Shown here piece by piece: positions 4,486-49,649 of a stretch of DNA of 64,000 nucleotides (its first letter is position 1; each line of letters starts with the position of its first letter). The position numbers and the translations under genes are program-made. Origin of the DNA: Blastomonas sp. AAP53 (GTDB taxonomy: Bacteria > Pseudomonadota > Alphaproteobacteria > Sphingomonadales > Sphingomonadaceae); the NCBI RefSeq assembly GCF_000331245.1, contig NZ_ANFZ01000004.1:62001-126000 (forward strand), read 5' to 3'. The notes below the pieces were generated by a model, which saw nothing but the letters and a program-made list of their open reading frames with translations, had not been told where the DNA came from and did not search any database.

Positions 4486-5427
4486 TCAGGCGAGCGCCAG
4501 GCCGGGCAACCATTCGGCCCACAGCCCGATCTTTTCCGCGTGGATCTGCTCGCCCTGTTCTGGCTGGACCGGCACCAGCAGCATCGTCGCATTGGGTGCC
4601 AGCTGGCCGATCAGGTGGCGGTCGGCCCGGATGACCTGGCCGATGCGGGGATAGCCGCCGGTGGTCTGGCCTTCGCAGCCGATCAGGTACGGCATGCCAT
4701 CGGGCGGGCACTGGATGATGCCGGGGAAGACCGCGCCGCTGCGGATCGGCGCTGCGGAATTGAGGTCGATCGCCGTACCCTGCAGTTTCAGCCCCATGCG
4801 GCTGGAGCGTGACGACACGCGCCAGCGCTTGCGCGCCAGTGCCGCCATGCCCAGCGCCAGCCGCTCGCTTTCCGGCCCCGCCACCACGCGCAGCACGAAG
4901 CCGTGCCCGAAAAAGGGTTGCAGTTCGGCCGGTGTCACGAGGTCTGCGACAATGGTGTCGCCATGGTCGGTCGGGATGACATCGCCATCAGCCAGTGCGC
5001 GGCCTTCCATCCCGCCAAAGCCGGCTCCGATCAGCGTGGATTGCGACCCCAGGACAGGGGCGAGCGCGATCGGCGCGGACAGCGCCAGATAGACCCGGCA
5101 TCCCGCCCAGACCCGGCCGATGGAGATGGTGTCGCCCGCCTTGAGCTGGAGCGTGTGGTGCGGCTCGGCCTCTTCGCCGTTGATCTCGACCTGACAGGGG
5201 GCGCCGGTGACAGCCACCGCCATGGCGTGGTCGGCGCGAAATTCTGCCGGCCCCAGCGTGATCTCGATCGCGGCAGCATCATAAGGCTTGCCCACCAGCC
5301 GGTTGGCGAGCGCAAGGCTCAGGGTATCGGCTGCGCCGCCCGATGGCACGGCCAGTCGGCGCAACGAACGGAACGGTCCTGCCTGAATGCTCGACTGCAG
5401 CCCGGCCTTGATGACGGTGATGCTCAT
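4486..5427 (-). CDS. pxpC: 5-oxoprolinase subunit C (biotin-dependent carboxyltransferase-like, KipA family)
   Basis: 313 residues starting at ATG 5427 (MSITVIKAGLQSSIQAGPF), which overlaps the pxpB stop by 4 bp. The family markers are the N-terminal GLQSSIQ segment, VPSGGAADTLSLALANRLVG and the late QCPPDGMPYLIGCEGQTTGG, all typical of the KipA/PxpC cyclophilin-like fold. With PxpA and PxpB it forms the prokaryotic ATP-dependent 5-oxoprolinase, which opens pyroglutamate to glutamate and repairs a damage product of glutamine and glutathione. It is the last gene of the operon. Some annotations call members of this family urea amidolyase-like, but the A-B-C context argues for PxpC. Confidence 0.9.
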   Translation of the reverse strand: MSITVIKAGLQSSIQAGPFRSLRRLAVPSGGAADTLSLALANRLVGKPYDAAAIEITLGPAEFRADHAMAVAVTGAPCQVEINGEEAEPHHTLQLKAGDTISIGRVWAGCRVYLALSAPIALAPVLGSQSTLIGAGFGGMEGRALADGDVIPTDHGDTIVADLVTPAELQPFFGHGFVLRVVAGPESERLALGMAALARKRWRVSSRSSRMGLKLQGTAIDLNSAAPIRSGAVFPGIIQCPPDGMPYLIGCEGQTTGGYPRIGQVIRADRHLIGQLAPNATMLLVPVQPEQGEQIHAEKIGLWAEWLPGLALA

Positions 5428-6083
5428 GCCGCGCCCCCCGTCCGCCGGGTTAGCTCGCTCGAATCGATCCGCTCGAAGCGCACCGGTTGCCCGGCCTTGA
5501 GCAGGGCAGGCGAAGGCGCATGCGCATCGAAAAGGGTCTCGGCGATCCGCCCGATGATCGGCCACCCGCCGGGCCCTGCATGCGGATACAGCCCGCAATG
5601 CTGGCCCAGCAGCCCGACCGACCCAGCCTCGACATGCGCGCGCGGGTCGGACAGGCGCGGGATATCAGGCGTTGTAGCGTCGCACACCAGATAGGCAAAA
5701 CCCGGCTGAAAGCCCAGCATGGCGACCCGCCAGTCCTGCGCCATGTGCCACGCGGGCAGCGCATCGGTCGTCAGGCCCAGCAGTTCGGCGACGATATCGG
5801 CATCATGCGCCCAGGGCTGTTCGTAGCAGATGTGCAGCGTCGCCGCTGAAGGGCTGGCCGAAGCGGTGTCTTCACTGTTGCCTTCGAGCAGGGCGAGCGC
5901 GGTCGTTTTCGCGGCATCGAGCGTGCGTTGCTGCGGGTTCCAGCTGAGCGACAGGCTATCCAACCCCGGCACGATATCATCCCAGCCCTGCGCCTCTGCC
6001 GCCATCGCCAAGGCTGCGACCCGATCGGGCGGCAGCGCCTGGATCATCAGCCAGTCATCGGCGCAGAAGATCGGCTGGGACAT
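5424..6083 (-). CDS. pxpB: 5-oxoprolinase subunit B (KipI family)
   Basis: 219 residues from ATG 6083. The N-terminal FCADDWLMIQALPPDR strand corresponds to the usual GD-x-ALLVEF start of the family, so the first Met is preferred although it overlaps the end of pxpA by 29 bp. The C-terminal half contains WRVAMLGFQPGFAYL, then AGSVGLLGQHCGLYP and GGWPIIGRIAETLFD, the strongly conserved KipI/PxpB signature. It is the partner of PxpC in the 5-oxoprolinase complex. In Bacillus, KipI also inhibits a sporulation kinase, a role not expected here. It is in the middle of the pxpA-B-C operon and coupled to pxpC by an ATGA overlap. Confidence 0.9.
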   Translation of the reverse strand: MSQPIFCADDWLMIQALPPDRVAALAMAAEAQGWDDIVPGLDSLSLSWNPQQRTLDAAKTTALALLEGNSEDTASASPSAATLHICYEQPWAHDADIVAELLGLTTDALPAWHMAQDWRVAMLGFQPGFAYLVCDATTPDIPRLSDPRAHVEAGSVGLLGQHCGLYPHAGPGGWPIIGRIAETLFDAHAPSPALLKAGQPVRFERIDSSELTRRTGGAA

Positions 6084-37424: not shown

Positions 37425-38793
37425 AGGCTTCCCGATACTTCTTGACAATCTGGAGCGCGACGATGTTGAGCAACAGCGTCACGATGAACAGGGTGAGGCC
37501 GAGCGCAAAGGCCGCCAGCGTCATCGGGCTGTTGAAATCGGTATCGCCGGTCAGCAGCTGCACGATCTGGGTGGTGACGGTGGTGACGCTTGCAAAGGGA
37601 TTGGCGGTGAGATTGGCAGCAAGCCCTGCGGCCATCACCACGATCATCGTCTCGCCGATCGCGCGGCTGACCGCGAGCAGTACGCCGCCGACCACGCCGG
37701 GGAGCGCTGCAGGGATCAGCACCTGCTTGATCGTCTCGCTCTTGGTTGCACCCATCGCCAGCGATCCGTCGCGCATGCTGCCGGGGACCGCGGCGATGCT
37801 GTCATCGGCCATCGATGAGACGAACGGGATGATCATCACGCCCATCACCAGCCCTGCGGCCAAAGCCGATTCGGACGAGGCGTCGGTGATGCCGATCGCC
37901 ACGGCGAAGCTGCGCAGCGCAGGCGCCACGGTCAGCGCGGCGAAATAGCCGTACACGACGGTGGGGACGCCTGCGAGGATCTCGAGGATCGGCTTCATCC
38001 ACTTGCGGACGTTGGCGCTGGCATATTGGGTGAGGTAGATCGCGCTCATCAGACCGAGCGGGATCGCCACCAGCATCGCGATGATCGCGCCGATGAACAC
38101 CGTGCCCCAGAACAATGGCACCGCACCGAAGCCGGTGGCTTGGCCATCGACGACCTTGTCCGACGGGTTCCATTGCAGCCCGAACAGGAATTCGAACGGC
38201 GAGACGAGGTTGAAGAAGCGCACCGTCTCGAAGATCAATGAGGCGACGATGCCGAGCGTCGCCAGAATGGCGATCAGCGATGCGAGCAGCAGCGCCAGCA
38301 TCACGGTCCGTTCCACCTGGGTCCGCGCGCGAAAATCGGGGCGAATGCGGGTGAAGGCATAAGCCGCTCCTGCAAAGCACAGCAGGAACGCGGCGAGCGC
38401 GCCGATCATCGCATAATTGCGGTCGGCATCGGCGTAGAGCGGTGCCAGTTCGCGCGCGGCGTCGTTGAACACCTTGACGTCGGGATTGCGCGAGAGCGAG
38501 CGCGCTTCGGACAGGATCGCGGCGCGTTCGAACGCATCGGTCGGCAGCTGCGCGGCGAGCGGGCTTTCCAGCACCGCATAGCTGCCCAGGGCAGGGGCAA
38601 CGGTGCTCCACACCAGCATGAACAATATGGCGGGGACCACCGCCCACATCGCGGCGTACCAGCCGTGATAGCTGGGCAGCGAATGGACGCTGGCGGCGCC
38701 CTGCTGGATGAAGCGTCCGGCGCGGGCGCGCGCGAACACCCAAGTGATCAGGCCAAGGCCGGCGATCAGGAACAGGATGGCGGTGCTGGTCAT
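37417..38793 (-). CDS. pstC: phosphate ABC transporter permease PstC, long form
   Basis: 458 residues, ATG 38793. It has extra N-terminal membrane spans and a soluble loop (ARSLSRNPDVKVFNDAARELA) before the permease domain, and is about 140 residues longer than E. coli PstC. The core shows PLGLMSAIYLTQYASANVRKWMKPILEILAGVPTVVYG and the EAA loop GSMRDGSLAMGATKSETIKQVLIPAALPG. It pairs with PstA in the membrane. It follows pstS after 7 bp. Confidence 0.94.
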   Translation of the reverse strand: MTSTAILFLIAGLGLITWVFARARAGRFIQQGAASVHSLPSYHGWYAAMWAVVPAILFMLVWSTVAPALGSYAVLESPLAAQLPTDAFERAAILSEARSLSRNPDVKVFNDAARELAPLYADADRNYAMIGALAAFLLCFAGAAYAFTRIRPDFRARTQVERTVMLALLLASLIAILATLGIVASLIFETVRFFNLVSPFEFLFGLQWNPSDKVVDGQATGFGAVPLFWGTVFIGAIIAMLVAIPLGLMSAIYLTQYASANVRKWMKPILEILAGVPTVVYGYFAALTVAPALRSFAVAIGITDASSESALAAGLVMGVMIIPFVSSMADDSIAAVPGSMRDGSLAMGATKSETIKQVLIPAALPGVVGGVLLAVSRAIGETMIVVMAAGLAANLTANPFASVTTVTTQIVQLLTGDTDFNSPMTLAAFALGLTLFIVTLLLNIVALQIVKKYREAYD

Positions 38794-38800
38794 GATGGGC

Positions 38801-39850
38801 CTATTTCAGCTCTGCGCCGTCGAGCGCGGTGAGCGACTGGATGCGGCCCAGCATGTCGGTGCGGACCTTGTCGGGCGCCGCGATCAGGCCGATGCGGGTC
38901 AGATAGCCTTCATTCTCGCCGCCGCGCAGGAACTCGGCGACGAATTCGCGCAGGCCGGGAATGACGTCGACGTGCTTTTTCTTCACGTAGATGTACAGCG
39001 TGCGTGCGCCAGGATATTCGCCGCTTTCGATGGTCGCATACGACGGCTCGACCCCGCCGATCGGCACGCCGCGCACCGTGTCGGCATTGTCGGCCAGATA
39101 GCTGTAGCTGAAGATGCCGACCGCATCGGGGTTGGTCGAGAGCTTCTGGACGATCAGGTTATCGTTCTCGCCGGTGTCGGTATAGGCCTGGTCGGTCCGC
39201 ACCGAATGGCAGATTTCCTCGAACTTGTCCTTGTTGCTGTCCGACAGTGCCTTGACCGCAGGATCGGCCTTGCAGCCCTTTTCCATGATGATCTCTTCCA
39301 GCGCGTCGCGCGTGCCGGATGTGGAGGGCGGGCCGAAGATGTTGATCCGCGTGTCGGGCAGGGCCGGGTTGATCGCGGGCCAGCGCACGGCGGTGTTGGG
39401 GCCCTTGCCGAAAGGCTGGGCGGCGAGCGCGGTGTAGAATTCCTCCACCGTCAGCGAGATCTTGGGGCCGTTCTTCGATTGGGCAAGCGCAATGCCGTCA
39501 AAGCCGATGACGATCTCGATCACGCCGTCGACGCCATTGGCGATGCAGCGTTCGAACTCGCTCTTCTTCATGCGGCGCGAGGCGTTGACGATATCGGGCG
39601 TATTGGCGCCCACGCCCGCGCAGAACAGTTCCACGCCGCCGCCGGTGCCGGTCGATTCGAGGATCGGGGAGCGCCGCTCGGGATCGAAGTTGACGAATTC
39701 CTCCGACACCTTCTTGGCGAACGGGAATACGGTCGAGGAGCCGACGATGCGGATCTCGCTCCGGCTGCTACCCTCGTTCGTCGAGGCAGGGTCCTGGCAT
39801 CCTGCCAGCGCCAAGGCTGGAAGGCAGGCAAAGACAAGCTTCCTGATCAA
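38801..39850 (-). CDS. pstS: phosphate-binding lipoprotein PstS
   Basis: 349 residues from TTG 39850, preceded by GAGAGGGG. This start places a short lipoprotein signal LIRKLVFACLPALALAGC, with the lipobox Cys at residue 18, at the N-terminus; the longer upstream frame lacks that logic. The periplasmic binding domain starts IRIVGSSTVFPFAKKVSEEF, has STGTGGGVELFCAG (phosphate loop) and GPPSTSGTRDALEEI. It captures phosphate for PstCAB. A Pho box lies 150 bp upstream. Confidence 0.93.
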   Translation of the reverse strand: MIRKLVFACLPALALAGCQDPASTNEGSSRSEIRIVGSSTVFPFAKKVSEEFVNFDPERRSPILESTGTGGGVELFCAGVGANTPDIVNASRRMKKSEFERCIANGVDGVIEIVIGFDGIALAQSKNGPKISLTVEEFYTALAAQPFGKGPNTAVRWPAINPALPDTRINIFGPPSTSGTRDALEEIIMEKGCKADPAVKALSDSNKDKFEEICHSVRTDQAYTDTGENDNLIVQKLSTNPDAVGIFSYSYLADNADTVRGVPIGGVEPSYATIESGEYPGARTLYIYVKKKHVDVIPGLREFVAEFLRGGENEGYLTRIGLIAAPDKVRTDMLGRIQSLTALDGAELK

Positions 39851-39997
39851 AACTGAAACCCCTCTCTGGGCGATGAAATGCCGCCGTATGTCCAGCAATG
39901 GCTGGCGATGGCGCCGGGCAGGACAGAATCGCGCGATGCGGTGCATGTCCTTTGGCCCCCTCAGGCCTTTGCCGTTAGGCAGGGGCGGTTGCCCGAA

Positions 39998-40026
39998 GAT
40001 GACAAACGGATGACGTTTTTATGACA
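39998..40026 (-). promoter_or_regulatory. Pho box ahead of pstS
   Basis: On the minus strand TGTCATA-AAAA-CGTCATC-CGTT-TGTCATC gives three 7-bp direct repeats at an 11-bp period, matching PhoB half-sites. It lies between phoR and pstS. It would drive pstSCAB-phoU-phoB under phosphate limitation. phoR itself lies upstream of it and is not downstream of this box. Confidence 0.85.
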
Positions 40027-40055
40027 CGGCCCCGGTCAGGGGCTGGCAAGTCGGT

Positions 40056-41354
40056 TCAGGCGGGGACCGCAGCCTCGCCTGTCGTGTTGCCCGTCTCGGT
40101 CTGTGGCCCGCGCGGATCGGCGGGCAGGGTGATGGTAATCGTCGTGCCGCGCTGCACCACGCTGTCGATTTCCAGCCGTCCGCGATGGCGCTCGACAATA
40201 TGTTTGACGATCGACAATCCCAGGCCGGTTCCGCCGATGGCGCGGCTGCGGCTGGAATCGACTCGATAGAATCGCTCGGTCAGGCGCGGCAGATGCTCCG
40301 GCGCGATGCCTTCGCCGCAATCGCTCACCGACAGCCGCACCAGCGCGGAATTGCGCGATGTACGCAGCCGCATCGTCACCGGCGTGCCGGGCTGGCCGTA
40401 TTTCATGCTGTTCGACACCAGATTGTGCAGCAACTGCGAAAGCTGCGCCCGGTCGCCGCGCAAGGGGGGCAGATCGGGCCCGACATCGACGACGATATCC
40501 GCGCCGCGATCAGGCTGGCTGTGGCGCAGCACCGTCTGCACCTCGTGCATCAGATCGGGCAGGTCGATCGGCGTATCGGGCACGCGGAACTTCTCCGCCT
40601 CGATCCGCGACAGCGAAATGAGGTCGTCGATCAGCTTCTGCATCCGGTTGGCTTCGCGGAACATGACGTTGAGAAAACGTGCGCGGGTGTCCGGGTCCTC
40701 GCCCGCTTCCTTGTCTTCCAGCGTCTCGATGAAACCCTTGATCGATGCGAGCGGCGTGCGCAGTTCGTGGCTGGCATTGGCGACGAAATCGGTCCGCATC
40801 CGCTCCACGGCATAGACGCCCGAGCGGTCCCACAGGTGCAGGATGCGCTCGCCGTCGGGCATGTCGCGCACCAGCATTTCCCAACGCTGGTCGCGGCTGC
40901 CGATGCCGACCAGCTGGATCGGCCCCTCGTTGGTCTGCAGGCTTTCGGCGAGCAGATCGGCGGCGGCCGGATGGCGAATGACCAGGCGGATGTCCTCGCC
41001 CACGCAATATTCGCCCAGCAGCTTGCGCGCGGCACTGTTGGCACGGCGCACCGTGGTGCCGGTCAGCACCAGCACGGGATCGGCGAGGCCATCGATGAAG
41101 CCGGTAAAGTCGCGATGCTGGCTGATCGGCTTGATTTCGGGCTCGCGGATCGGGGCGGCGGCCTGGGGATTGTACTTCGCCGGGCTGGACAGGTCGGCCA
41201 TCGCGACGATCGCGACGAGTCCCGCAGCAAAGCAGATCATTGCCTGTTCTATGCCATTGCTGCCGAACTGGCTGATCGCCACCCCTGCGCCGAGCAACGC
41301 CGTCGCAAGAAGAAATCGACCGCCGTTCAGGCCCGTTTCGCTGGCGTCTCCCAT
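40056..41354 (-). CDS. phoR: phosphate regulon sensor histidine kinase PhoR
   Basis: 432 residues. Two short N-terminal membrane spans (FLLATALLGAGVAIS and MICFAAGLVAIVAMA) are followed by a PAS-like region (LADPVLVLTGTTVRRANSAARKLLG), then the H-box FVANASHELRTPLASIKGFIETLED with the phospho-His. The ATPase domain follows with NLVSNSMKYG and GGTGLGLSIVKHIVERHRG. It senses PstSCAB-PhoU status and phosphorylates PhoB. Placing phoR before pstS and phoB at the far end of the cluster is typical of alphaproteobacteria. Confidence 0.95.
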   Translation of the reverse strand: MGDASETGLNGGRFLLATALLGAGVAISQFGSNGIEQAMICFAAGLVAIVAMADLSSPAKYNPQAAAPIREPEIKPISQHRDFTGFIDGLADPVLVLTGTTVRRANSAARKLLGEYCVGEDIRLVIRHPAAADLLAESLQTNEGPIQLVGIGSRDQRWEMLVRDMPDGERILHLWDRSGVYAVERMRTDFVANASHELRTPLASIKGFIETLEDKEAGEDPDTRARFLNVMFREANRMQKLIDDLISLSRIEAEKFRVPDTPIDLPDLMHEVQTVLRHSQPDRGADIVVDVGPDLPPLRGDRAQLSQLLHNLVSNSMKYGQPGTPVTMRLRTSRNSALVRLSVSDCGEGIAPEHLPRLTERFYRVDSSRSRAIGGTGLGLSIVKHIVERHRGRLEIDSVVQRGTTITITLPADPRGPQTETGNTTGEAAVPA

Positions 41355-41545
41355 AGGCGCTGGCCTATACCAGCGTTCCGCTCAGCACGCCATTGATGAT
41401 CCGTGGTAACGCGCAATTTACCCTCGGGCGGCATCCTGTCCCGCAGAAGGACAGGCGATCAAATGGCTTGCCTTGGCGCAACGAAGCTTCTTTAGTTGAA
41501 ATCAAATATGTGTCTGCACGGGTGGGGCACAAAGAAAGTACAGGC

Positions 41546-41974
41546 ATGAGCGGTCAAGACGGCATTCCGGGTGAAGGCAGGCATGATGATGCCGCCAAGG
41601 GTAGCGAGCGCGGTGTGGCGACACGCCGCACGCTGCTGATCGGGGCGGTGGCAACCTCTGCCGTGGTCAGCATCCGCCCGGCGCTGGCGCAGACCGCAGG
41701 GTCGGTGCTCAACTGCCAAATTCCGGTGCCCGAGCGCGGCAAGGGCATGTTCATTGATCCCACGGGCAAGCTGGTATCGCCCGATACGCCGGGCGCCTTT
41801 CCGCCATCGCCGCGCGATTTCACCGGAGAAGAGGTGCGCAAGGCTCTGCAGGGCCGCAATCTGCCCGGCACCACGCGCGAACAGTCGCAGGCGTATCTCA
41901 ACTATATCCGCAAGCTGCAGAACGGGCAGAGCGGCTTTACCTGCTACGCCTCGCTGCAGATGCCGCGCCGCTGA
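41546..41974 (+). CDS. Tat-like secreted protein of unknown function at the kinase/PqqD locus
   Basis: 142 residues from ATG 41546. The N-terminal region carries a twin-arginine-like segment (ATRRTLLIGAVATSAVVS, cleavage near ALAQ/T). The mature part is about 95 residues with two Cys (LNCQIPVP and FTCYASLQ), a Pro-rich middle (PDTPGAFPPSPRDF) and a basic end MPRR. No family was recognised. It is the first gene of a run with the PqqD-like, HprK-like and nucleotidyltransferase genes, 21 bp ahead of the PqqD-like gene. It may be the exported product or partner of that system, which is inference from position only. Confidence 0.72.
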   Translation: MSGQDGIPGEGRHDDAAKGSERGVATRRTLLIGAVATSAVVSIRPALAQTAGSVLNCQIPVPERGKGMFIDPTGKLVSPDTPGAFPPSPRDFTGEEVRKALQGRNLPGTTREQSQAYLNYIRKLQNGQSGFTCYASLQMPRR

Positions 41975-41995
41975 TCCTCGCTGACGGGCCATTGC

Positions 41996-42304
41996 ATGCC
42001 ATCCGCTTATGCCGCACTGCCTGCCAGCGCCCTCAAGCGCGTCACGCTGGGCGGGCTTGAAGCGATCTACCATCTGCCTTCGGGGATTACCCATCTGCTG
42101 GCCGAGCCGGTGCCCGACTTGCTTGATACGCTCGCCGCGCAGGCACCGGGCCGGTACCTCACGGCCGGCGAGGTTCTGGGCCTGATTCGCGAGCGATTCG
42201 ATGTGGCTGGCGACGATCCCACAGAGCAGCCGCAAAACGTGCTGGCCGAGCGGCTGGCAGAGCTCGCGGCGCTGGGTCTGGTCGCGGTGATGCACCATGC
42301 GTGA
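41996..42304 (+). CDS. PqqD-like peptide chaperone (HPr-rel-A system type)
   Basis: 102 residues, ATG 41996. The fold pattern is PqqD-like: an N-terminal beta region (TLGGLEAIYHLPSGITHLL), a helix with VPDLLDTLAAQAP, then YLTAGEVLGLIRERFDV and a winged end with NVLAERLAELAALGLVAVM. PqqD-like domains (RiPP recognition elements) bind leader peptides of modified peptides. A small PqqD-like gene beside an HprK-related kinase matches, as I recall, the TIGRFAM-defined HPr-rel-A gene neighbourhood, whose function is unknown. Recognition of a peptide substrate is inferred. Confidence 0.7.
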   Translation: MPSAYAALPASALKRVTLGGLEAIYHLPSGITHLLAEPVPDLLDTLAAQAPGRYLTAGEVLGLIRERFDVAGDDPTEQPQNVLAERLAELAALGLVAVMHHA

Positions 42305-42400
42305 CACGCTTGCATCAGCGCGATGCAAATCTGCATCGGCCAGGCTCTAAGCCCCTGTTTCCATTTTGTCCGCGCCCGCCCTCGCGATATGGCGCGAGGC

Positions 42401-43294
42401 ATGCGCCACTCCTGTTCCATCGCTGTAGGCCCGGCCCGATTCCGCATCGGCAGTGACTGGCGCGCGCCGATCGATCAGCTGCGTCAGCTGTATGCCGATT
42501 ATCCGATGGAACAGTCGGTCCCGGACTTTACCGTGCGGTTGCAGGCGACATCGGTGCTGCGCCGCGTGATCCGTCCGCAGGTGGCGATCGCAGGCGACTT
42601 CACGTTGCCCGATGCTGCGCCGCTGCCGCTCGAACAGGGGTTGCTGGCTGCCGAGATGGCGATGAACCTGCAGATGGCCCTGGGCTGGCGCCGGCACCTG
42701 CTGCTGCATGCCAGCGCGGTATCGCGCAATGGCCGCGCAGTGATCATGACCGGGGTCTCGGGGGCGGGAAAGTCCACGCTCTCTGCGCTGCTGGGCGAAC
42801 GCGGCTGGCGATTCCTGGGTGACGAGTTCGTGCTGATCGATCCTGATACCGGCAACATCGCGCCGTTCCCGCGCCCGATCAGTCTCAAGAACGAGTCCAT
42901 CGCCTCGATGGAACGAGAGGTCGATGATGACACGCGGTTCGGCCCGGTCATGCATGATACGCCCAAGGGCACGATCCGCCACCTGCGCCCACGCGCGGAA
43001 TGGGTCGAGCAGATGGCGCGTGAGACGCGCCCTGCGCTGCTGCTGTTCCCGCGCTTCGGCTATGCCCGCGCGGTGCGCCGGGTCGACGAGGCGGAGAGCT
43101 TCGTCCGGCTCACTCAGGCATCGACCAATTATGTCGCTCTGGGCGAGCGCGGGTTCGATGCGCTCACTGGTCTGGTTCGCTCGGTGCGCGCCTGCGCGAT
43201 CGACTATGCCGATGGTGAGGAGGGGGCCGAGTTGGTCGAGCGGCTCTGGTCCGAGCAGGGCACCAGACTGGGCGACCGGGCCGCCGCCGCATGA
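42401..43294 (+). CDS. HprK-related kinase A
   Basis: 297 residues from ATG 42401; ATG 42389 and a longer frame from 42323 are alternatives. The HprK-like core shows LLLHASAVS (His about 103), the P-loop GVSGAGKST (118-126) and FLGDEFVLID (Asp about 141), the same order of catalytic His, P-loop and acid as HPr kinase/phosphorylase. The N-terminal domain (VGPARFRIGSDWRAPIDQLRQLY) differs from true HprK. No HPr gene is adjacent. Relatives in lasso-peptide clusters phosphorylate precursor peptides, so a peptide or protein substrate is possible here. It overlaps the nucleotidyltransferase gene by ATGA. Confidence 0.82.
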   Translation: MRHSCSIAVGPARFRIGSDWRAPIDQLRQLYADYPMEQSVPDFTVRLQATSVLRRVIRPQVAIAGDFTLPDAAPLPLEQGLLAAEMAMNLQMALGWRRHLLLHASAVSRNGRAVIMTGVSGAGKSTLSALLGERGWRFLGDEFVLIDPDTGNIAPFPRPISLKNESIASMEREVDDDTRFGPVMHDTPKGTIRHLRPRAEWVEQMARETRPALLLFPRFGYARAVRRVDEAESFVRLTQASTNYVALGERGFDALTGLVRSVRACAIDYADGEEGAELVERLWSEQGTRLGDRAAAA

Positions 43295-44328
43295 CCGATG
43301 GCTGGTCGGTTGCGCGCGCGCTGACCGATCCGGCATCGGTGGCCGGTCTCGATTCGACCGGCTGGACGCAGCTGCTGTCTGCTGCGCGGGCACTCTCGTT
43401 GATCGGGACGCTGGCGGAAGTTCTTGCCGATGCGCCGCTCCCGCCCGATGCTGCCCGCGTCCTCGCGGATGTGCGTCATTCCAACGTCACCGGCCAGCGC
43501 CAGGCCTTGTGGGAGGCCGAAAGCGCGCGCATGGCACTGGCCGATTATCCGGGCCGGGTGGTGCTGCTCAAGGGCACGGCCTTTGCCGCCGCCGGATATG
43601 ACGCCGCATTGGGCCGGTCAATCGGCGATCTCGACATATTGGTGGCGCGCGACGGGCTCGATCAGGTCGAGGCGCTGCTGCTCAAGGCCGGCTGGGAGTG
43701 GGTCAAGCCCGATCCCTATGATGACGCCTATTACCGCCAGTGGATGCACGAGTTGCCGCCACTGATCCATGCGACGCGCGACCGGATGATCGACGTCCAC
43801 CATACCATCCTGCCGCTGACGGCGGGGCCGACGCCCGATGCCGCTGCGCTGATCGCCGATGCGCGGGCGCTGCCGTCGGGGCTGTATGTGCTGTCACCCG
43901 CCGACATCATCTGCCACGCCGCGGCGCACCTCATCGCCGATGGCGACCTATCGGGCGGCATGCGCAACCTGTGGGATATCGACCGGCTGGTGCGCCAGTT
44001 CATCGTGGAGGAATCGGGTTTCTCGGACACGCTGGCCGAGCGTGCGAAGCTGCATGGGCTGACCGATGCGGTGGGGCGGGCGCTGAGGCTGTCGGCGCAG
44101 CTGTTCGGCACGCCGATCGTTTTCAGGCAGGCGCAGGGGGGCAGCGGGTCGGTGCCTGCCATCGACTCGCTGTTCCTGCGCCGGATCACCGCCGTCGATG
44201 GCTGGGGACGCAAGACCCGCAAGCTCACCCGCCAGGCGTTCTACATCCGCTCGCACCTGCTGCGCATGCCGCCCGCGATGCTGGCGCGGCACCTGTGGAC
44301 CAAGTGGCGCAAGGGCCACCGGGGTTAA
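43291..44328 (+). CDS. nucleotidyltransferase family protein (NTP_transf_5 type)
   Basis: 345 residues, ATG 43291 overlapping the kinase stop. The minimal nucleotidyltransferase core is VVLLKGTAFAAAGY (Lys about 94), followed by GRSIGDLDILVARDGL, where Asp 113 and Asp 115 are the metal-binding pair of the DxD motif. Further on come MIDVHHTIL and LSPADIICHAAAHLIADGD. This matches the uncharacterised nucleotidyltransferase family often found beside HprK-like kinases and in polysaccharide or peptide-modification loci. It probably transfers a nucleotide to a product of this locus. It converges on the GNAT gene with a 4-bp overlap. Confidence 0.8.
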   Translation: MTDGWSVARALTDPASVAGLDSTGWTQLLSAARALSLIGTLAEVLADAPLPPDAARVLADVRHSNVTGQRQALWEAESARMALADYPGRVVLLKGTAFAAAGYDAALGRSIGDLDILVARDGLDQVEALLLKAGWEWVKPDPYDDAYYRQWMHELPPLIHATRDRMIDVHHTILPLTAGPTPDAAALIADARALPSGLYVLSPADIICHAAAHLIADGDLSGGMRNLWDIDRLVRQFIVEESGFSDTLAERAKLHGLTDAVGRALRLSAQLFGTPIVFRQAQGGSGSVPAIDSLFLRRITAVDGWGRKTRKLTRQAFYIRSHLLRMPPAMLARHLWTKWRKGHRG

Positions 44329-44747
44329 TCCTGCAGCCTGCGCCCCATGCTGATGCGGGGTTCTTCGGCATAGCCAAGGCGCGCATAAAAGGCTGCGACC
44401 GCTTCGTTGGTATCGCGCACCTGCAGGTTCACCTTGGCGCATCCCAGTGCGCGCAGCGCCGCCTCGGCCGTCCGAACCAGCCGTGTGCCCAGGCCATGAC
44501 GTTGCTCGCCGGGCAGCACTGCGACCGAATACAGCCAGCCACGATGCCCGTCATATCCCGCCATGATGGTGCCCACGACCTGCTCGCCCAGCAGGGCAAC
44601 CCAGAAGAGTTCGGGCTGGAACGCCAGTTTTTGTGGGATGGCGACCCGTGCGTGGTTGTGCGGTGGGTCGTCCGGAAAACAGGCGTCCCAGAGCGCCTCG
44701 ACGCCGGAAAAATTGCGTGGATCGAACCGGCGTATGGTTATCGGCAA
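44325..44747 (-). CDS. GNAT family N-acetyltransferase
   Basis: 140 residues from TTG 44747, overlapping the gph stop by 10 bp. No ATG start is available. The acetyl-CoA loop is SVAVLPGEQRHGLGTRLVRTAEAAL (Q/RxxGxG/A), followed by KVNLQVRDTNEAVAAFYARLGYAE, which resembles the YpeA/RimI-like group. The substrate is unknown. It is co-directional with gph and probably co-transcribed. Confidence 0.85.
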   Translation of the reverse strand: MPITIRRFDPRNFSGVEALWDACFPDDPPHNHARVAIPQKLAFQPELFWVALLGEQVVGTIMAGYDGHRGWLYSVAVLPGEQRHGLGTRLVRTAEAALRALGCAKVNLQVRDTNEAVAAFYARLGYAEEPRISMGRRLQD

Positions 44748-45427
44748 GCAATCCGCTCCAGTATCGGAATGAACTCGTCATAATGATCGATGATCGCATC
44801 GGCGCCCAGTTCGTCGACCGGCTGGTGCAGAAAGCCGAAGCTCACCGCGACGCAGGGGATGCCCGCATTATGCGCGGCCATCACGTCGTAGATGCTGTCG
44901 CCGATGAAGGCGGCGGGCGTGACACCTGGTTCACCGCCGCAGCGGCGGATCATCTCGTCGATCGGTGCGCGGTCGGGCTTGGATTTGCCCTTGCCCATGG
45001 TATCGCCGCCGATGACGCAGGCGAAACGGTCGATCAGGCCGACCTCGGTGAGCAGCTTGACCGCGAACCGTTCGTACTTGTTGGTGACGATGGTCATCTT
45101 CACCCCCATCGCATCGAACCGCGCCATCGCGTCGAGCAGGCCCGGATAGGGCGGGGACCCTGTCCCCAGATTTTCGCCATAATGGTCGAGCAGGATCGGC
45201 AGGTACTGGCGCAAGGCTTCCGGATCGGTGTTGCCCGAACGCTCCAGGCCGACCTGCAGCATGTGCTTGGCACCCAGGCCGACCATCGGTTTGATCTCGT
45301 CCTGGCTCAGTGCCGGCAGCCCTGCCAGCGCTAGTGTATGGTTGACCGATACGGTCAGTTCCGGGCTGGTGTCGAGCAATGTGCCATCGAGATCAAAGCC
45401 AATGATTTGGTAGGGAAAGTCTGTCAT
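44738..45427 (-). CDS. gph: phosphoglycolate phosphatase-like HAD hydrolase
   Basis: 229 residues from ATG 45427. HAD motif I reads IIGFDLDGTLLDTSPELTVSVNHTL, motif II Thr is in KMTIVTNKYERFA, and motifs III and IV are KGKSKPDRAPIDE and AAFIGDSIYDVMAAHNAGI. The GLPALSQDEIKPMVGLGAKHML cap matches Gph (2-phosphoglycolate phosphatase). Related beta-phosphoglucomutase-like enzymes share the fold, so the name is probable rather than certain. It is divergent from glmU. Confidence 0.85.
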   Translation of the reverse strand: MTDFPYQIIGFDLDGTLLDTSPELTVSVNHTLALAGLPALSQDEIKPMVGLGAKHMLQVGLERSGNTDPEALRQYLPILLDHYGENLGTGSPPYPGLLDAMARFDAMGVKMTIVTNKYERFAVKLLTEVGLIDRFACVIGGDTMGKGKSKPDRAPIDEMIRRCGGEPGVTPAAFIGDSIYDVMAAHNAGIPCVAVSFGFLHQPVDELGADAIIDHYDEFIPILERIACR

Positions 45428-45521
45428 GGGAGCCTGCATCGCCCGAAAAAGGTGGAAGATGCAAGCGGTTCGTGGCAAGGGTTTGTTCGATCTGCTTTGG
45501 GAAACGCGGAGAACGTAGAGT

Positions 45522-46880
45522 ATGGGTGAGCAGGCGCTGGCTGCGATCATTTTGGCGGCGGGCCAGGGCACACGGATGAAGTCCGATCTGCACAAGGTGC
45601 TCCACCCTGTTGCCGGCCTTCCGATGCTGCATCACCTGCTGGAAAGCCTGAGCGCGGCGGGGGCCGCACGTCAGGTCGTCGTTGTGGGAGCACGGCGCGA
45701 GCAGGTGGAGGCATCGGTGGCTGGCCGGTCTGTGCAGACTGCGCACCAGGCCGAGCAACTGGGCACCGCTCATGCGGCGCTTCAGGCGAAAGACGCCTTG
45801 GCCGACTTCGACGGCGTGGCGATTGTCTGCTTCGGCGACACGCCCTTCCTCAGGCCTGACACCATAAGCCGCCTGACCGATAGATTGTCCGCGCCCGATG
45901 CGCCGCGCGTCGCGGTGCTGGGTTTCGTTCCCGATGACGCCAAGGCCTATGGGCGGATCATCGCCGACGAGCAGGGCAGCATTGCCAAGATGGTCGAGTT
46001 CAAGGATGCCAGCGAGACCGAACGCGCAGTAAAGCTGTGCAATTCGGGCGTCACCGCCGTGCGCACCGCCGATCTGTGGCCGCTGCTCGAACGCGTCGGC
46101 AACGACAATGCGGCGGGTGAATACTACCTTCCCGATATCGTCATGCTGGCGCTGGCCGATGGGGATCGCGCCGTGGTGGTCGAGACCGATCCCGACGAGC
46201 TGATCGGCATCAACAGCCGCGCCGAACTCGCCGAAGCCGAAGCCATCTGGCAGGCGCGCCGCCGCGCGCAGGCGATGGCCGATGGTGCCAGCCTGATCGC
46301 GCCCGATACGGTCTGGTTCGCGCATGATACCGTCGTCGGCCGCGATGTGGTGATCGAGCCCAATGTCGTCTTTGGCCCCGGCGTGACCATTGCCGACAAT
46401 GTCGTGATCCACGCGTTCAGCCATCTCGAAGGCGCGACCATCGCCAGCGGTTGTTCGGTCGGCCCGTTCGCGCGGCTGCGCCCCGGCGCGGAGATGCAGG
46501 AAGGCGCCAAGGTCGGCAATTTCGTCGAGATGAAGAAGGCCGTACTGGGCCCCGGCGCCAAGGCCAGCCACTTGACCTATCTGGGCGATGCGACTGTTGG
46601 CGCGAACGCCAATATCGGCGCGGGCACGATTACCTGCAATTATGACGGCTATTTCAAATACCAGACGGTGATCGGCGAAAACGCGTTCATCGGATCGAAC
46701 AGCGCGCTGATCGCCCCGGTGAAGATCGGCCGCGATGCGATCGTCGCAGCGGGCAGCGCAGTCTCGCGCGATGTCGCCGATGGCGAACTTCGCATGGTCC
46801 GCGCCGAGCAGCTCGTCAAACCCGGCTGGGCTGACCGCTTCCACGATGCGATGCGCAGAAAGAAGCGCGAGGGCAAGTGA
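45522..46880 (+). CDS. glmU: bifunctional UDP-GlcNAc pyrophosphorylase / glucosamine-1-phosphate acetyltransferase
   Basis: 452 residues. The uridylyltransferase domain starts AAIILAAGQGTRMKSDLHKVLHPVAG with the Arg and Lys of the nucleotide loop, and VAIVCFGDTPFLRPDTI follows. The C-terminal left-handed beta-helix shows hexapeptide repeats and GPGAKASHLTYLGDATVGANANIGAGTITCNYDG, the acetyltransferase active site. It makes UDP-GlcNAc for peptidoglycan and LPS. It is separated from glmS by a toxin-antitoxin module. Confidence 0.95.
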   Translation: MGEQALAAIILAAGQGTRMKSDLHKVLHPVAGLPMLHHLLESLSAAGAARQVVVVGARREQVEASVAGRSVQTAHQAEQLGTAHAALQAKDALADFDGVAIVCFGDTPFLRPDTISRLTDRLSAPDAPRVAVLGFVPDDAKAYGRIIADEQGSIAKMVEFKDASETERAVKLCNSGVTAVRTADLWPLLERVGNDNAAGEYYLPDIVMLALADGDRAVVVETDPDELIGINSRAELAEAEAIWQARRRAQAMADGASLIAPDTVWFAHDTVVGRDVVIEPNVVFGPGVTIADNVVIHAFSHLEGATIASGCSVGPFARLRPGAEMQEGAKVGNFVEMKKAVLGPGAKASHLTYLGDATVGANANIGAGTITCNYDGYFKYQTVIGENAFIGSNSALIAPVKIGRDAIVAAGSAVSRDVADGELRMVRAEQLVKPGWADRFHDAMRRKKREGK

Positions 46881-47038
46881 GGCGGCATCCGCTTCTACCA
46901 GTATTCATTGTCTGCATGCTCGTGTTCGCGCTGATTGCGTTGACGGTGTGGCGCGCGATCAAGTGCGAGGCGTCTGGAGGCGCGCTGACCTCGACGATAC
47001 GCCTCGGCCAGTGCATGCAGCTTGACATGATATCATGA
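46877..47038 (+). CDS. 53-residue single-span membrane protein after glmU
   Basis: GTG 46877 overlaps the glmU stop (GTGA). The frame gives a basic start (VRRHPLLP), one membrane span (VFIVCMLVFALIALTVW), then RAIKCEASGGALTSTIRLGQ with two further Cys and a stop at 47036-47038. The stop falls inside the operator-like AT-rich region of the toxin-antitoxin module, so the original 3' end may have been altered when that module arrived. No family was recognised. Support is the coupled start and the hydrophobic segment. Confidence 0.5.
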   Translation: MRRHPLLPVFIVCMLVFALIALTVWRAIKCEASGGALTSTIRLGQCMQLDMIS

Positions 47039-47058
47039 TATGATATCAGTATATCATT
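47022..47058 (+). promoter_or_regulatory. promoter and operator of the vapBC module
   Basis: A consensus -35 TTGACA (47022-47027) is followed after 16 bp by TATCAG (47044-47049). The region is filled with palindromes: ATGATATCAT (47027-47036), TGATATCA (47041-47048) and GATAT-CAGT-ATATC (47042-47055). These are likely binding sites for the ribbon-helix-helix antitoxin. The predicted transcript would begin almost at the ATG 47059, so that first ORF may be leaderless. Confidence 0.72.
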
Positions 47059-47208
47059 ATGCCCAGTATCCTCGCCGACCTTCCTCAAGATGACATCGAA
47101 TGGCTCGACCAGCTGGCTGCCGTGCCGGGCAAGTCGCGGATGCAGGTTTTGAGCGTGGTTGTAAGGTGGTGTTGTCAGCAGAACGAGGGCCAGCCATGCG
47201 AATCCTGA
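47059..47208 (+). CDS. truncated antitoxin-like (ribbon-helix-helix) protein upstream of vapB
   Basis: 49 residues (MPSILADLPQDDIEWLDQLA, then AVPGKSRMQVLSVVVRW). It aligns without gaps of note to the first 43 residues of the following antitoxin, sharing the ILxxxPxxDIxxLDxxAAxxxKSR pattern. It lacks the toxin-binding tail. The end (CCQQNEGQPCES) overlaps the next start by 13 bp. It is either a decayed duplicate or a DNA-binding-only regulator. The codons remain open from the module's promoter. Confidence 0.6.
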   Translation: MPSILADLPQDDIEWLDQLAAVPGKSRMQVLSVVVRWCCQQNEGQPCES

Positions 47209-47441
47209 CCGAAATTCCCGACGAAGATATCCAGAAGCTCGACGCTATTGCTGCCAAGGGTAAGAAGTCGCGGGCAGCCACGATCCGCGATGCCGTGAAG
47301 CTTTATCTCGTGCAGAACAGCGAGGATCGAAGCTGGATAGAGCGTGGGGCTGGATATTGGAAGGGACGCGACGATATTGGCGATGCCATCGAATATCAGC
47401 GGGCGATGCGCGAGGATCGTCGCCCTTATGATGATATTTGA
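47196..47441 (+). CDS. vapB: VapB-type ribbon-helix-helix antitoxin
   Basis: 81 residues from ATG 47196 with CGAGGG upstream. The N-terminal RHH domain (RILTEIPDEDIQKLDAIAAK, GKKSRAATIRDAVKLYL) binds operator DNA, and the acidic/aromatic tail (SWIERGAGYWKGRDDIGDAIEYQRAMREDRRP) would fold over the toxin. It is followed after 3 bp by the PIN toxin gene. The type II pairing supports the VapB name, though the family is broad. Confidence 0.82.
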   Translation: MRILTEIPDEDIQKLDAIAAKGKKSRAATIRDAVKLYLVQNSEDRSWIERGAGYWKGRDDIGDAIEYQRAMREDRRPYDDI

Positions 47442-47444
47442 ACC

Positions 47445-47810
47445 GTGTCTGACCCGTTTTTCGATACCAACATCCTGATCGACTGGTTGTGGGACAAAGC
47501 CCCCGCAATTGCCGAGCTTTCCCGGTACAGCCGTCACAGGATCAGTCGGATCGTGTGGACTGAAATTCTGGCGGGCGAGCCCTTGGAAAGGCGCGATACC
47601 ATCCGGCAATTGATATCGTCGTTCGATGTGGTGGAAATTGATGCGCGGATCGCAACTGCAGCGGCCGATATCCGATATCGGACAAAAATGAAGCTGATGG
47701 ACGCCTATATCCTCGCTACCGCGCAGGTGAACGGCGCTATTCTCATTACACGAAATACCAAGGATTTTCCCGCAGAGATGCCGGGCATCCGCGTTCCCTA
47801 CCAGCTTTGA
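47445..47810 (+). CDS. vapC: VapC-type PIN-domain toxin
   Basis: 121 residues from GTG 47445. The PIN acidic set is complete: Asp7 (FFDTNILID), Glu40 (VWTEILAG), Asp86 (KLMDAYILATA) and Asp107 (TRNTKDF). It is a Mg2+-dependent RNase that blocks translation when free of VapB. It lies 15 bp ahead of glmS, so read-through from the module into glmS is possible. Confidence 0.88.
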   Translation: MSDPFFDTNILIDWLWDKAPAIAELSRYSRHRISRIVWTEILAGEPLERRDTIRQLISSFDVVEIDARIATAAADIRYRTKMKLMDAYILATAQVNGAILITRNTKDFPAEMPGIRVPYQL

Positions 47811-47825
47811 AAGGCCCTTTGTTGC

Positions 47826-49649
47826 ATGTGCGGTATCGTTGGAATCCTTGCCCGTCGTGATGTCGTTGCCGATCTGGTCGATGGCCTGAAGCGGATGGAA
47901 TATCGCGGTTATGACTCGTCGGGCGTGTGCACGGTGCACGATGGGCAGCTGGTGCGCAGGCGTGCCGAGGGCAAGCTGCGCAACCTGGTCGATGTGCTGG
48001 CAAAGGATCCGGCACCAGGCCATGTCGGCATCGCGCACACCCGCTGGGCGACGCACGGCGCGCCGACCACGTCGAACGCGCACCCGCATGCCACCGCCGA
48101 GGTGGCTTTGGTCCACAATGGCATCATCGAGAACTTCAAGTCCCTGCGCGATGCGCTGATCGCGCGCGGGCGGGTGTTCGAGAGCGAGACCGATACCGAA
48201 GTCGTCGCGCACCTGGTGAGCGAACGGGTCGAGGCGGGCGACAGCCCGCAGGACGCGGTCAAGGCGGTGCTGCCGCAGCTGCGCGGTGCGTTCGCGCTCG
48301 CCATCGCCTTCCGCCAGCACCCCGATCTGCTGATCGGCGCGCGGCTCGGCTCGCCGCTGGTGCTCGGCTATGGAGACGATGAGACCTATCTGGGATCGGA
48401 CGCGCTGGCGCTCGCCCCGCTGACGCAGCGCATCGCCTATCTCGAGGAGGGCGACTGGGTGGTGCTGACCCGCGAGGGCGCGCAGGTCTATGATGCCGAC
48501 AATGCGCCGGTGGAGCGCGAGATCACGCTGTCGGGCGTCACCGGCGCATTGATCGACAAGGGCAACCACCGCCACTTCATGCAGAAGGAGATCTTCGAGC
48601 AGCCGGTGGTCGTGGCGCAGACGCTGCAAAGCTATATCCGCTCGGTCGAGCAGAAGGTGGCGCTGCCGCAGATGGACTTCGAACTGTCCGACATCGACCG
48701 GGTGACGATCATCGCCTGCGGCACTGCATCCTATGTCGGGATGATCGGCAAATACTGGATCGAGAGCCTCGCGCGCGTTCCGGTCGAGGTCGATGTCGCG
48801 TCGGAGTTCCGTTACCGCGACCCGGTGCTGAGCCCCGGCATGCTGGGCGTGGTCGTCTCGCAATCGGGCGAAACCGCCGATACGCTGGCGGCGCTGCGCC
48901 ACATGAAGGCGGGCGGGGTGACCACCGCCGGGATCATCAACGTGCCGACCAGCTCGATGGCGCGCGAGGTCGATCTGCTGCTGCCGACGCATGCCGGTCC
49001 CGAGATCGGGGTGGCCTCGACCAAGGCGTTCACCTGCCAGCTGGCGGTGATGGCGGCGCTCGCGGTCAATCTGGCGCGCGCCAAGGGACGGCTGAGCCAG
49101 GCGGAGGAAGCCGAGATCGTGCGTCACCTGATCGAGGCGCCGGCGGCGATCAATGCGGCGCTGGCGCACGATGCCGAGATCGAGGCGATGGCGCACACTA
49201 TCGCGCAGGCGCGCGATGTGCTGTATCTGGGGCGCGGGCCCGATTATGCGCTGGCGCTGGAAGGCGCGCTGAAGCTCAAGGAAATCAGCTATATCCATGC
49301 TGAGGGCTATGCCGCGGGCGAGATGAAGCACGGCCCCATCGCGCTGATCGACGAGGCGGTGCCGATCATCGTCATCGCACCCTCTGGCCCGCTGTTTGAA
49401 AAGACGGTGAGCAACATGCAGGAGGTGCGCGCGCGCGGCGGCAAGGTGGTGCTGATCTCGGACGCGCAAGGGCTGGCCGAAGCGGGCGAGGGGTGCCTCG
49501 CCACCATCGAGATGCCACGCGTTCACCCGCTGATCGCGCCGCTCGTCTATGCCGTGCCGGTCCAGCTGCTCGCCTATCACGTCGCCGTCGCCAAGGGCAC
49601 CGACGTCGATCAGCCGCGCAACCTGGCCAAGTCGGTCACCGTGGAGTGA
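47826..49649 (+). CDS. glmS: glutamine-fructose-6-phosphate aminotransferase (isomerizing)
   Basis: 607 residues, ATG 47826. The Ntn glutaminase domain starts MCGIVGILARRDVVADLVDGL with catalytic Cys2, and continues YRGYDSSGV and HTRWATHGAPTTSNAHPH. Two SIS domains bind the sugar: ACGTASYVGMIGKYWIE, SQSGETADTLAALRHMK and the C-terminal YAGEMKHGPIALID-like AAGEMKHGPIAL, ending LAKSVTVE. It supplies GlcN-6-P for cell-wall synthesis. It is usually near glmU, which here lies on the other side of vapBC. No glmS ribozyme is seen or expected. Confidence 0.96.
   Translation: MCGIVGILARRDVVADLVDGLKRMEYRGYDSSGVCTVHDGQLVRRRAEGKLRNLVDVLAKDPAPGHVGIAHTRWATHGAPTTSNAHPHATAEVALVHNGIIENFKSLRDALIARGRVFESETDTEVVAHLVSERVEAGDSPQDAVKAVLPQLRGAFALAIAFRQHPDLLIGARLGSPLVLGYGDDETYLGSDALALAPLTQRIAYLEEGDWVVLTREGAQVYDADNAPVEREITLSGVTGALIDKGNHRHFMQKEIFEQPVVVAQTLQSYIRSVEQKVALPQMDFELSDIDRVTIIACGTASYVGMIGKYWIESLARVPVEVDVASEFRYRDPVLSPGMLGVVVSQSGETADTLAALRHMKAGGVTTAGIINVPTSSMAREVDLLLPTHAGPEIGVASTKAFTCQLAVMAALAVNLARAKGRLSQAEEAEIVRHLIEAPAAINAALAHDAEIEAMAHTIAQARDVLYLGRGPDYALALEGALKLKEISYIHAEGYAAGEMKHGPIALIDEAVPIIVIAPSGPLFEKTVSNMQEVRARGGKVVLISDAQGLAEAGEGCLATIEMPRVHPLIAPLVYAVPVQLLAYHVAVAKGTDVDQPRNLAKSVTVE

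What the first reader, a model, noticed from the sequence alone, without database searches (positions are those of the whole stretch)
41546..44328. Kinase / PqqD-like / nucleotidyltransferase cassette with a Tat-like secreted protein
Four consecutive plus-strand genes combine an exported small protein, a PqqD-like (peptide-recognition) protein, an HprK-related kinase with an intact His / P-loop / Asp set, and a nucleotidyltransferase with an intact DLD motif. The same kinase and nucleotidyltransferase types occur in lasso-peptide tailoring loci, but no lasso cyclase or protease gene is present here. As I recall, TIGRFAMs names an 'HPr-rel-A system' of unknown function with this kinase and PqqD protein. 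The locus could phosphorylate and nucleotidylate a peptide or protein substrate.
Basis: partly seen in the sequence, partly recalled or inferred. Interest (0 to 1): 0.78.

Follow-up and report, generated by a model that had tools for sequence, protein, structure and literature searches.

The report
Maturation cassette for a secreted protein
Four neighbouring bacterial genes appear to form a system in which a kinase, a peptide-binding helper and a second enzyme modify a small secreted protein near its end before it leaves the cell; we propose which protein and which residue, which can now be tested directly.

Summary
The four genes are real. Two belong to the NCBIfam "HPr-rel-A system" (TIGR04352 kinase, TIGR04353 PqqD-like protein); another is a PF14907 nucleotidyltransferase. 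The new result is the fourth gene. In 65 of 81 cassette loci across Proteobacteria, a twin-arginine secreted protein lies within about 5 kb. Seven tested match no Pfam or NCBIfam family over its cut-off. Their cores mostly differ between families, but they share a tail, G-hydrophobic-[ST]-C-hydrophobic-x-S-hydrophobic (window: GFTCYASL, Ser136). In the window's family the protein occurs in exactly the 32 of 113 genomes with the kinase over cut-off, including six where it is unlinked; these six and five unlinked copies in another family all keep the tail. Outside the order, 18 of 20 cassettes examined lie near exosortase A/PEP-CTERM exopolysaccharide genes. My reading: an RRE-guided, RiPP-like pathway in which the kinase phosphorylates the tail serine and the PF14907 enzyme extends the phosphate (a relative reportedly adds hexose) before Tat export. 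Substrate identity is well supported; site, chemistry, Tat use and surface role are inferred. Nine loci carry a tail-less secreted protein instead. A new variant of a known kind, related to phosphorylated lasso peptides and Bacillota LPPs.

The parts
41546..41974 (+). Proposed substrate: small secreted protein, 142 aa (P0001)
   Evidence: Twin-arginine leader; Cys57 and Cys133 invariant in 14 aligned relatives; no Pfam/NCBIfam match; found in 32/32 genomes of its family with the kinase over cut-off vs 0/81 without
41618..41692 (+). Twin-arginine-like leader (residues 25-49, ATRRTLLIGAVATSAVVSIRPALAQ)
   Evidence: Leader HMM hit; RR in 68 of 68 hits, though the HMM seeds themselves contain RR
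41933..41956 (+). Conserved C-terminal tail GFTCYASL (residues 130-137); Ser136 at 41951-41953 is the proposed phospho-acceptor
   Evidence: [ST]CxxS[AFILMV] in 65 of 68 tails of 45 aa and 66 of 68 anywhere after the leader; shuffle rates 0.5% and 1.3%
41996..42304 (+). PqqD-like, presumed RiPP-recognition-element protein, 102 aa (P0002)
   Evidence: TIGR04353 36.8 bits, cut-off 35; 31 of 31 aligned members match TIGR04353 at E<=0.001, 6 of 31 match PF05402 PqqD at E<=0.01, the window protein not among them
42323..43294 (+). HprK-related kinase A (P0003); conserved domain begins near ATG 42401
   Evidence: TIGR04352 236.9 bits; His129, Lys150, Asp167, Glu168, Lys189, Lys215 at 100% in 81 loci
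43291..44328 (+). PF14907 nucleotidyltransferase-fold enzyme (P0004)
   Evidence: 161.2 bits; Lys94, Gly95, Arg109, Asp113, Asp115, Asp168 at 100% in 79 loci

Best explanation
The cassette matures one dedicated secreted protein, in the manner of a RiPP pathway. In the cytoplasm the PqqD-like RRE holds the precursor. The HprK-type kinase phosphorylates the invariant serine of the C-terminal G-hydrophobic-[ST]-C-hydrophobic-x-S-hydrophobic tail (Ser136 in the window). The PF14907 enzyme then builds on the phosphate, most likely adding a sugar or nucleotide. The modified protein leaves through the Tat route, and its N-terminal and tail cysteines probably pair in the periplasm. Its ancestral setting is the exosortase A/PEP-CTERM exopolysaccharide locus, so the product probably works at the cell surface or in the matrix. 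Supported by computation: conserved cassette, substrate-kinase pairing, tail motif, intact active-site residues, exopolysaccharide neighbourhood. Inferred: site, chemistry, order of steps, Tat use, disulfide and surface role.
For: Kinase-nucleotidyltransferase adjacency in 75 of 79 loci and distance correlation r=0.93 over 79 loci, permuted maximum 0.16, host kinship not removed. Leader-selected secreted proteins: 65 of 68 carry the tail in the last 45 aa against a 0.5% shuffle rate; at position +2, left free in the pattern, 66 of 66 are hydrophobic. Background: 4 of 633 other genes of 100-330 aa match, two of which (L054, L093) are substrates the leader HMM missed. Profile: in family f1 kinase-positive = substrate-positive, 32 of 113 genomes, 0 of the other 81 (Fisher 7e-29, not corrected for kinship). 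All 11 unlinked matches (six f1, five f5 genomes) keep the tail. 80 of 80 named close relatives carry the substrate with the tail and exactly two Cys in the last 105 residues. Cys count even in 64 of 65. Kinase tree: tail-type loci on both sides of the deepest drawn split, both sides supported at 99. XrtA/PEP-CTERM-type genes near 18 of 20 loci examined outside the order. Relatives: PsmK phosphorylates and PsmN adds hexoses (review PMC9266682); LppK phosphorylates a precursor serine in RRE-containing LPP clusters (PMC13381572).
Against: No chemistry was tested. Nine of 81 loci (families f45, f48, f64, f76, f84) have a different secreted protein without the tail although their kinases are over the TIGR04352 cut-off, so the tail serine cannot be the target in all members. 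L105 has no adjacent substrate and was not searched further. Of 88 order genomes with the kinase over cut-off, 32 had no match to the f1 substrate profile; many of these have tail-bearing proteins found by the leader HMM, but not every one was looked at, and the f5 and f4 matches to that profile cover mainly the leader. The tail could be a docking or structural element. Tat models were hit only below cut-off, by one of six further substrates tested, and RR was in all HMM seeds. In the window's own family none of 31 loci lies beside exopolysaccharide genes. Deleting LppN, the NTP transferase of LPPs, changed nothing in its published test. The tail pattern was written after looking at sequences.
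Confidence: 0.52

Rival explanations
1. The C-terminal tail is the docking site for the PqqD-like RRE (or for the kinase), and the modification is made elsewhere on the secreted protein.
For: RREs bind short peptides (established), and leader and tail are the parts shared across most families. Nine loci lack the tail yet keep the kinase and a secreted protein with an RR leader. AlphaFold2 puts the tail on a helix, residues 131-138, at middling confidence.
Against: Lasso and LPP precursors carry the RRE site in the N-terminal leader, and paeninodin-type kinases phosphorylate a C-terminal serine. The tail keeps one serine in 66 of 68, although the pattern itself demands it.
Confidence: 0.22
2. 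The enzymes act on another molecule (a lipid, a sugar carrier or an exopolysaccharide unit), and the secreted protein is a co-expressed partner, not the substrate.
For: Cassettes outside the order lie in exopolysaccharide clusters. PF14907 is described only as an uncharacterised nucleotidyltransferase.
Against: A PqqD-like RRE argues for a peptide substrate. The secreted protein follows the kinase in presence and absence even when unlinked. Related kinases act on precursor peptides.
Confidence: 0.15
3. The tail is purely structural (a helix tied by a disulfide to the N-terminal cysteine), and conservation reflects folding of one ancient protein family rather than modification.
For: Exactly two Cys in the last 105 residues in 80 of 80 named loci; even Cys numbers in 64 of 65.
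Against: BLAST finds no core similarity between families except among f44, f47, f52 and f63, while the tail stays; a folding constraint alone would be expected to keep more than the leader and an octapeptide (inference).
Confidence: 0.11

Closest known systems
HPr-rel-A system (NCBIfam TIGR04352 + TIGR04353)
   Same: Both window proteins pass the curated cut-offs; this is that system by name.
   Different: As far as the calls show, NCBIfam names the kinase and the PqqD protein only. The secreted substrate, its tail and the exopolysaccharide setting are described here. Text searches for HPr-rel-A, TIGR04352, TIGR04353, PF14907 and 'HprK-related kinase A' found 0 papers in the open-access library.
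LPP (linear polyphosphorylated peptide) RiPPs of Bacillota (PMC13381572; abstract, outline and passages seen)
   Same: Discrete RRE, HprK-like kinase and NTP transferase acting on a precursor, without a lasso cyclase. Precursors of 35-200 aa, so overlapping in size with the proteins here.
   Different: LPP clusters have a SpI-like leader peptidase and an MsbA-like transporter; their precursors have a conserved N-terminus and variable C-termini, and the phosphorylated serine is near the start of the core. Here a Tat-type leader is the apparent export route, no peptidase or exporter stood out as conserved (no dedicated HMM), and the conserved candidate serine is near the C-terminus. The terms Sphingo, Proteobacteria, Pseudomonadota, twin-arginine, PqqD and TIGR0435 are absent from its main text.
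Paeninodin/pseudomycoidin-type lasso peptide tailoring (PadeK, ThcoK, SyanK; PsmK, PsmN), via passages of review PMC9266682
   Same: Kinase that phosphorylates a C-terminal serine of a precursor; annotated nucleotidyltransferase reported to add hexoses to the phosphorylated serine.
   Different: No lasso cyclase recognised at this locus (38500-48000); the product is a secreted protein with paired-looking cysteines. The same genome has a lasso-like cluster on another contig.
SynChlorMet cassette (ScmC kinase-like, ScmD PqqD-like)
   Same: Weak matches of P0003 to ScmC (22.7 bits, cut-off 125) and of one of 31 PqqD members to ScmD (E=8e-5).
   Different: ScmC match far below cut-off; the ScmD cut-off was not shown. 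Other features of that cassette were not tested.

Membership tests
HPr-rel-A system | HprK-related kinase A over the TIGR04352 cut-off | tested here: met
   236.9 vs 200 bits
HPr-rel-A system | PqqD-family protein over the TIGR04353 cut-off | tested here: met
   36.8 vs 35 bits, a narrow pass
Phosphorylated lasso peptide cluster | Lasso cyclase (asparagine synthase-like) | tested here: not met
   No asparagine-synthase-like ORF recognised by eye in 38500-48000 (the amidotransferase-type ORF at 47826 reads as GlmS); the rest of the window was not examined. In the 81 neighbourhoods the conserved amidotransferase cluster is represented by an XrtA amidotransferase, TIGR03108 over cut-off
Phosphorylated lasso peptide cluster | B2-type leader protease | tested here: inconclusive
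   None recognised among the conserved neighbourhood clusters; no dedicated HMM was run
LPP RiPP | RRE + HprK-like kinase + NTP transferase | tested here: met
   RRE by PqqD family membership only
LPP RiPP | SpI-like leader peptidase and MsbA-like exporter | tested here: inconclusive
   Neither recognised as a conserved neighbour in the clustering of 81 loci; no dedicated HMM was run
LPP RiPP | Precursor phosphorylated on serine | not testable with these tools
   Needs mass spectrometry
Tat substrate | Twin-arginine motif followed by a hydrophobic stretch | tested here: met
   Window residues 27-49; RR in 68 of 68 leaders, but all HMM seeds carried RR
Tat substrate | Curated Tat-signal model over cut-off | tested here: not met
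   Sub-threshold only, in one of six further substrates; the window protein matched nothing
PqqD/RRE fold | Winged-helix RRE structure | tested here: inconclusive

The most novel reading that the evidence does not exclude
A widespread proteobacterial protein-modification pathway: dedicated Tat-exported proteins receive a phosphate-linked sugar or nucleotide on a C-terminal helix carrying the G-hydrophobic-[ST]-C-hydrophobic-x-S-hydrophobic motif, in the cytoplasm and guided by an RRE, and then serve as carriers, primers or anchors for exosortase-linked exopolysaccharide at the cell surface.
Probability: 0.22. Interest if true: 0.88.

Novelty: new variant of a known kind. Interest (0 to 1): 0.72.

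Why it matters
The HPr-rel-A system has a name but no described substrate in the papers searched. This analysis names a substrate and one residue, which makes the function testable by a single mass measurement. If right, RRE-guided phosphorylation of the lasso/LPP type also serves twin-arginine secreted proteins across Proteobacteria, and the exosortase A/exopolysaccharide loci gain a protein-modification arm.

Tried and rejected
Lasso peptide reading: rejected for this locus, as no cyclase was recognised in 38500-48000 or as a conserved neighbour. Chance-neighbour reading for the secreted protein: rejected by unlinked copies and the presence/absence match. A first leader HMM contained two wrong-frame seeds and was rebuilt; only the rebuilt one is counted. 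PDB sequence searches: with the kinase, HprK appeared only weakly, E=0.032 behind UvrA and PEPCK chains and E=0.0024 with the kinase alignment; with the nucleotidyltransferase and the substrate alignment nothing below E=0.15; with the PqqD alignment the best were designed helical proteins and CpcN. AlphaFold2 of the window substrate gave mean pLDDT 66.1, with residues 71-120 at 85-90 per ten-residue block; Foldseek against PDB found 11 matches at E<=10, best 2.3, none at E<=0.001. The unlinked copies lie beside pilus-type secretion genes (g6 genomes) or behind YCII and sigma-factor genes (f5 genomes); the two settings differ, so I drew no functional conclusion. The nine tail-less proteins: several seem to share a G-aromatic-aromatic patch, by eye only; a pattern tried for it matched only one of them, so it was not pursued.

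Full report
What is there. Gaps are 21 bases between genes 1 and 2, 18 bases to the longest kinase ORF (96 if the kinase begins at the ATG at 42401, which lines up with where relatives begin), and a 4-base overlap into gene 4. The kinase and PqqD-like protein pass the NCBIfam cut-offs of the HPr-rel-A system, the latter narrowly; gene 4 is PF14907. Gene 1 matches no family.

Conservation of the cassette. TIGR04352 is over its cut-off in 88 of 196 sampled genomes of the window's order and in 61 of 398 across the phylum (E<=1e-30). Those 61 are 13 from the order and 48 from outside the class; none came from the rest of the class (how many class members were sampled is not printed in full). I fetched 80 neighbourhoods of 14-19 kb: 60 from the order (59 with the kinase over cut-off, G006/L093 just below) and 20 of the 48 outside it. 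The nucleotidyltransferase was found in 78 of 80 and follows the kinase within 300 bases in 75 of 79 loci, window included. A PqqD-type gene, by cluster membership, lies just upstream in 68 of 81. Kinase and nucleotidyltransferase distances correlate at r=0.93 over 79 loci, permuted maximum 0.16. The presumed catalytic residues are invariant in both enzymes (that they are catalytic is by analogy).

The substrate. Clustering showed, in most groups, a small or medium secreted protein upstream with a twin-arginine leader but little other similarity (the output was cut). A leader HMM built from 19 seeds, all with RR, found 68 ORFs at E<=0.01 in 65 of 81 loci; 65 of the 68 carry [ST]CxxS[AFILMV] in their last 45 residues, against 0.5% for shuffled tails. 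Counting the whole part after the leader gives 66 of 68, shuffle rate 1.3%; the exceptions are L109 and L112. I had seen the tails before choosing seeds and writing the pattern, so three things matter more than the count. First, a position the pattern leaves free (+2) is hydrophobic in 66 of 66, and Gly stands two residues before [ST] in 52 of 66; the residue between them is mostly but not always hydrophobic. Second, among 633 other genes of 100-330 aa only 4 match, and two of these (L054, L093) are substrates that the HMM missed. Third, later sets keep it: 11 of 11 unlinked copies and 80 of 80 named loci. Between leader and tail, BLAST at E<=1e-3 finds no similarity between families except among f44, f47, f52 and f63. 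In total 65 of 81 loci have a tail-bearing substrate within about 5 kb (62, plus L045, L054 and L093), 9 have an RR-leader protein without the tail, and 7 have none adjacent (grouping used).

Presence and absence. In the order sample, 56 of 196 genomes match the f1 substrate alignment, and by my comparison of the lists all 56 also have the kinase over cut-off. The other 32 kinase-positive genomes do not match this alignment; f8, for instance, has tail-bearing proteins that only the leader HMM finds, and not every such genome was looked at. In family f1 (113 genomes by my count of the listing), the 32 genomes with the kinase over cut-off are exactly the 32 with the substrate. Five genomes of genus g6 and G053 lack it at the cassette but have it elsewhere, with tails TCFASI and SCLNSF. 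Five f5 genomes have an unlinked copy with the tail; in four of them (G029, G052, G055, G070) it is extra to the one at the cassette, and in G087 the cassette was not examined. Most of the co-occurrence is within one operon and one family, so the Fisher value of 7e-29 overstates independence; the unlinked cases carry the argument.

Anatomy of the substrate. RR is present in 68 of 68 leaders, partly by construction. In the 65 proteins with the tail, the first cysteine lies about 4-13 residues after the leader match, and cysteine numbers are even in 64 of 65. The 80 named loci have exactly two in the last 105 residues. This suggests a disulfide joining the N-terminal and tail cysteines after export (inference). 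AlphaFold2 places the window's tail on a helix at residues 131-138, in a model of modest confidence, with no PDB fold match.

Setting. I had one representative of each of ten recurrent neighbour clusters named by NCBIfam; they came from loci of f5, f8, f44, f48 and f63. Nine pass the cut-off of an XrtA/PEP-CTERM-system family: TIGR03087, 03088, 03108, 03019, 03018, 03006, exosortase A TIGR03109, PrsT TIGR02917 and PrsK TIGR02916; the chain-length determinant TIGR03007 scored just under its cut-off. By cluster membership, 18 of 20 loci outside the order, 6 of 8 in f8, 9 of 16 in f5, 0 of 31 in f1 and 0 of the other 6 in the order lie within 9 kb of such genes. Within the order a PhoR-like histidine kinase gene lies on the opposite strand upstream in 49 of 61 loci. 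The kinase tree separates the order from the rest with support 99 on both sides, and tail-bearing substrates occur on both; eight of the nine tail-less loci group together at support 94, under the starred level.

Mechanism. The nearest tested relatives are lasso-tailoring kinases and LPPs. According to the review PMC9266682 (passages seen), PadeK phosphorylates the C-terminal serine of the precursor, ThcoK and SyanK polyphosphorylate it, and in pseudomycoidin PsmN, an annotated nucleotidyltransferase, installs one or two hexoses on the phosphorylated serine, with a nucleotidyltransferase role not excluded; the original paper was not held. In LPPs (PMC13381572; abstract, outline and passages seen) LppK phosphorylates Ser3 of the core and deletion of LppN changed nothing in the heterologous host. 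By analogy I propose RRE capture, phosphorylation of the tail serine, extension by the PF14907 enzyme, and Tat export. The first half rests on close analogy plus a conserved serine near the C-terminus; the second half and the surface role are weaker.

What counts against it. Nine loci keep the enzymes with a tail-less secreted protein, so the enzymes can work on other sites. The tail may be a docking site. The Tat models score below cut-off. The window's own family has left the exopolysaccharide setting.

Literature. HPr-rel-A: 0 papers. TIGR04352, TIGR04353, PF14907, HprK-related kinase A: 0. At least three of HprK, nucleotidyltransferase, PqqD, exosortase: 0. At least three of exosortase, twin-arginine, PqqD, XrtA, HPr kinase: 0. 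PqqD + serine kinase + nucleotidyltransferase: one paper, on rumen lasso peptides (listing only). 'HprK-related kinase' or PqqD: 173 papers, of which the 25 listed hold PqqD only. Two RRE-mining papers (PMC7470986, PMC12710340; term searches of the main text only) do not mention kinase, nucleotidyltransferase, HPr, twin-arginine or exosortase. The library is open-access only and supplements were not searched, so absence there is not proof of absence in print.

Noticed in passing
L114:8749-14300 (own genome, contig C14): A lasso-like cluster on another contig of the same genome: HprK-type kinase (PF07475 39 bits), asparagine synthase-like protein whose best NCBIfam match is the lasso cyclase model but below cut-off (238 vs 525 bits), and a PF14907 protein (159 bits). 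A useful internal comparison.
   Followed up: partly
L121-L125, near position 7000: In five genus-g6 genomes the unlinked substrate gene lies beside a fumarylacetoacetate hydrolase-like gene and pilus-type secretion genes (secretin, T2SSF); domains checked in L124 only.
   Followed up: partly
L116-L120, around 3100-5600 in substrate orientation: Unlinked f5 substrate copies follow a YCII-domain gene and a sigma-70/DUF6596 gene, which might give them their own sigma-factor control; domains checked in L119 only.
   Followed up: partly
L094, L096, L097, L104, L108, L109, L111, L112, L113: Tail-less secreted proteins beside TIGR04352 kinases; several share, by eye, a G-aromatic-aromatic patch (e.g. 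CHSHGYWKN, CGGYSPGWW). They may be a second substrate class.
   Followed up: no
window 40056-41354, minus strand: A PhoR-like histidine kinase gene (HisKA, HATPase_c) lies divergently upstream; this arrangement recurs in 49 of 61 loci of the order and in 0 of 20 outside it, so phosphate control of the cassette is worth testing.
   Followed up: partly
window 47100-47810, plus strand: Ribbon-helix-helix protein and PIN-domain protein, a VapBC-like toxin-antitoxin pair.
   Followed up: no
L141: A record titled Bacillus sp. 2B10 carries a cassette like those of Sphingomonadaceae; probably a mislabelled or contaminated assembly.
   Followed up: no
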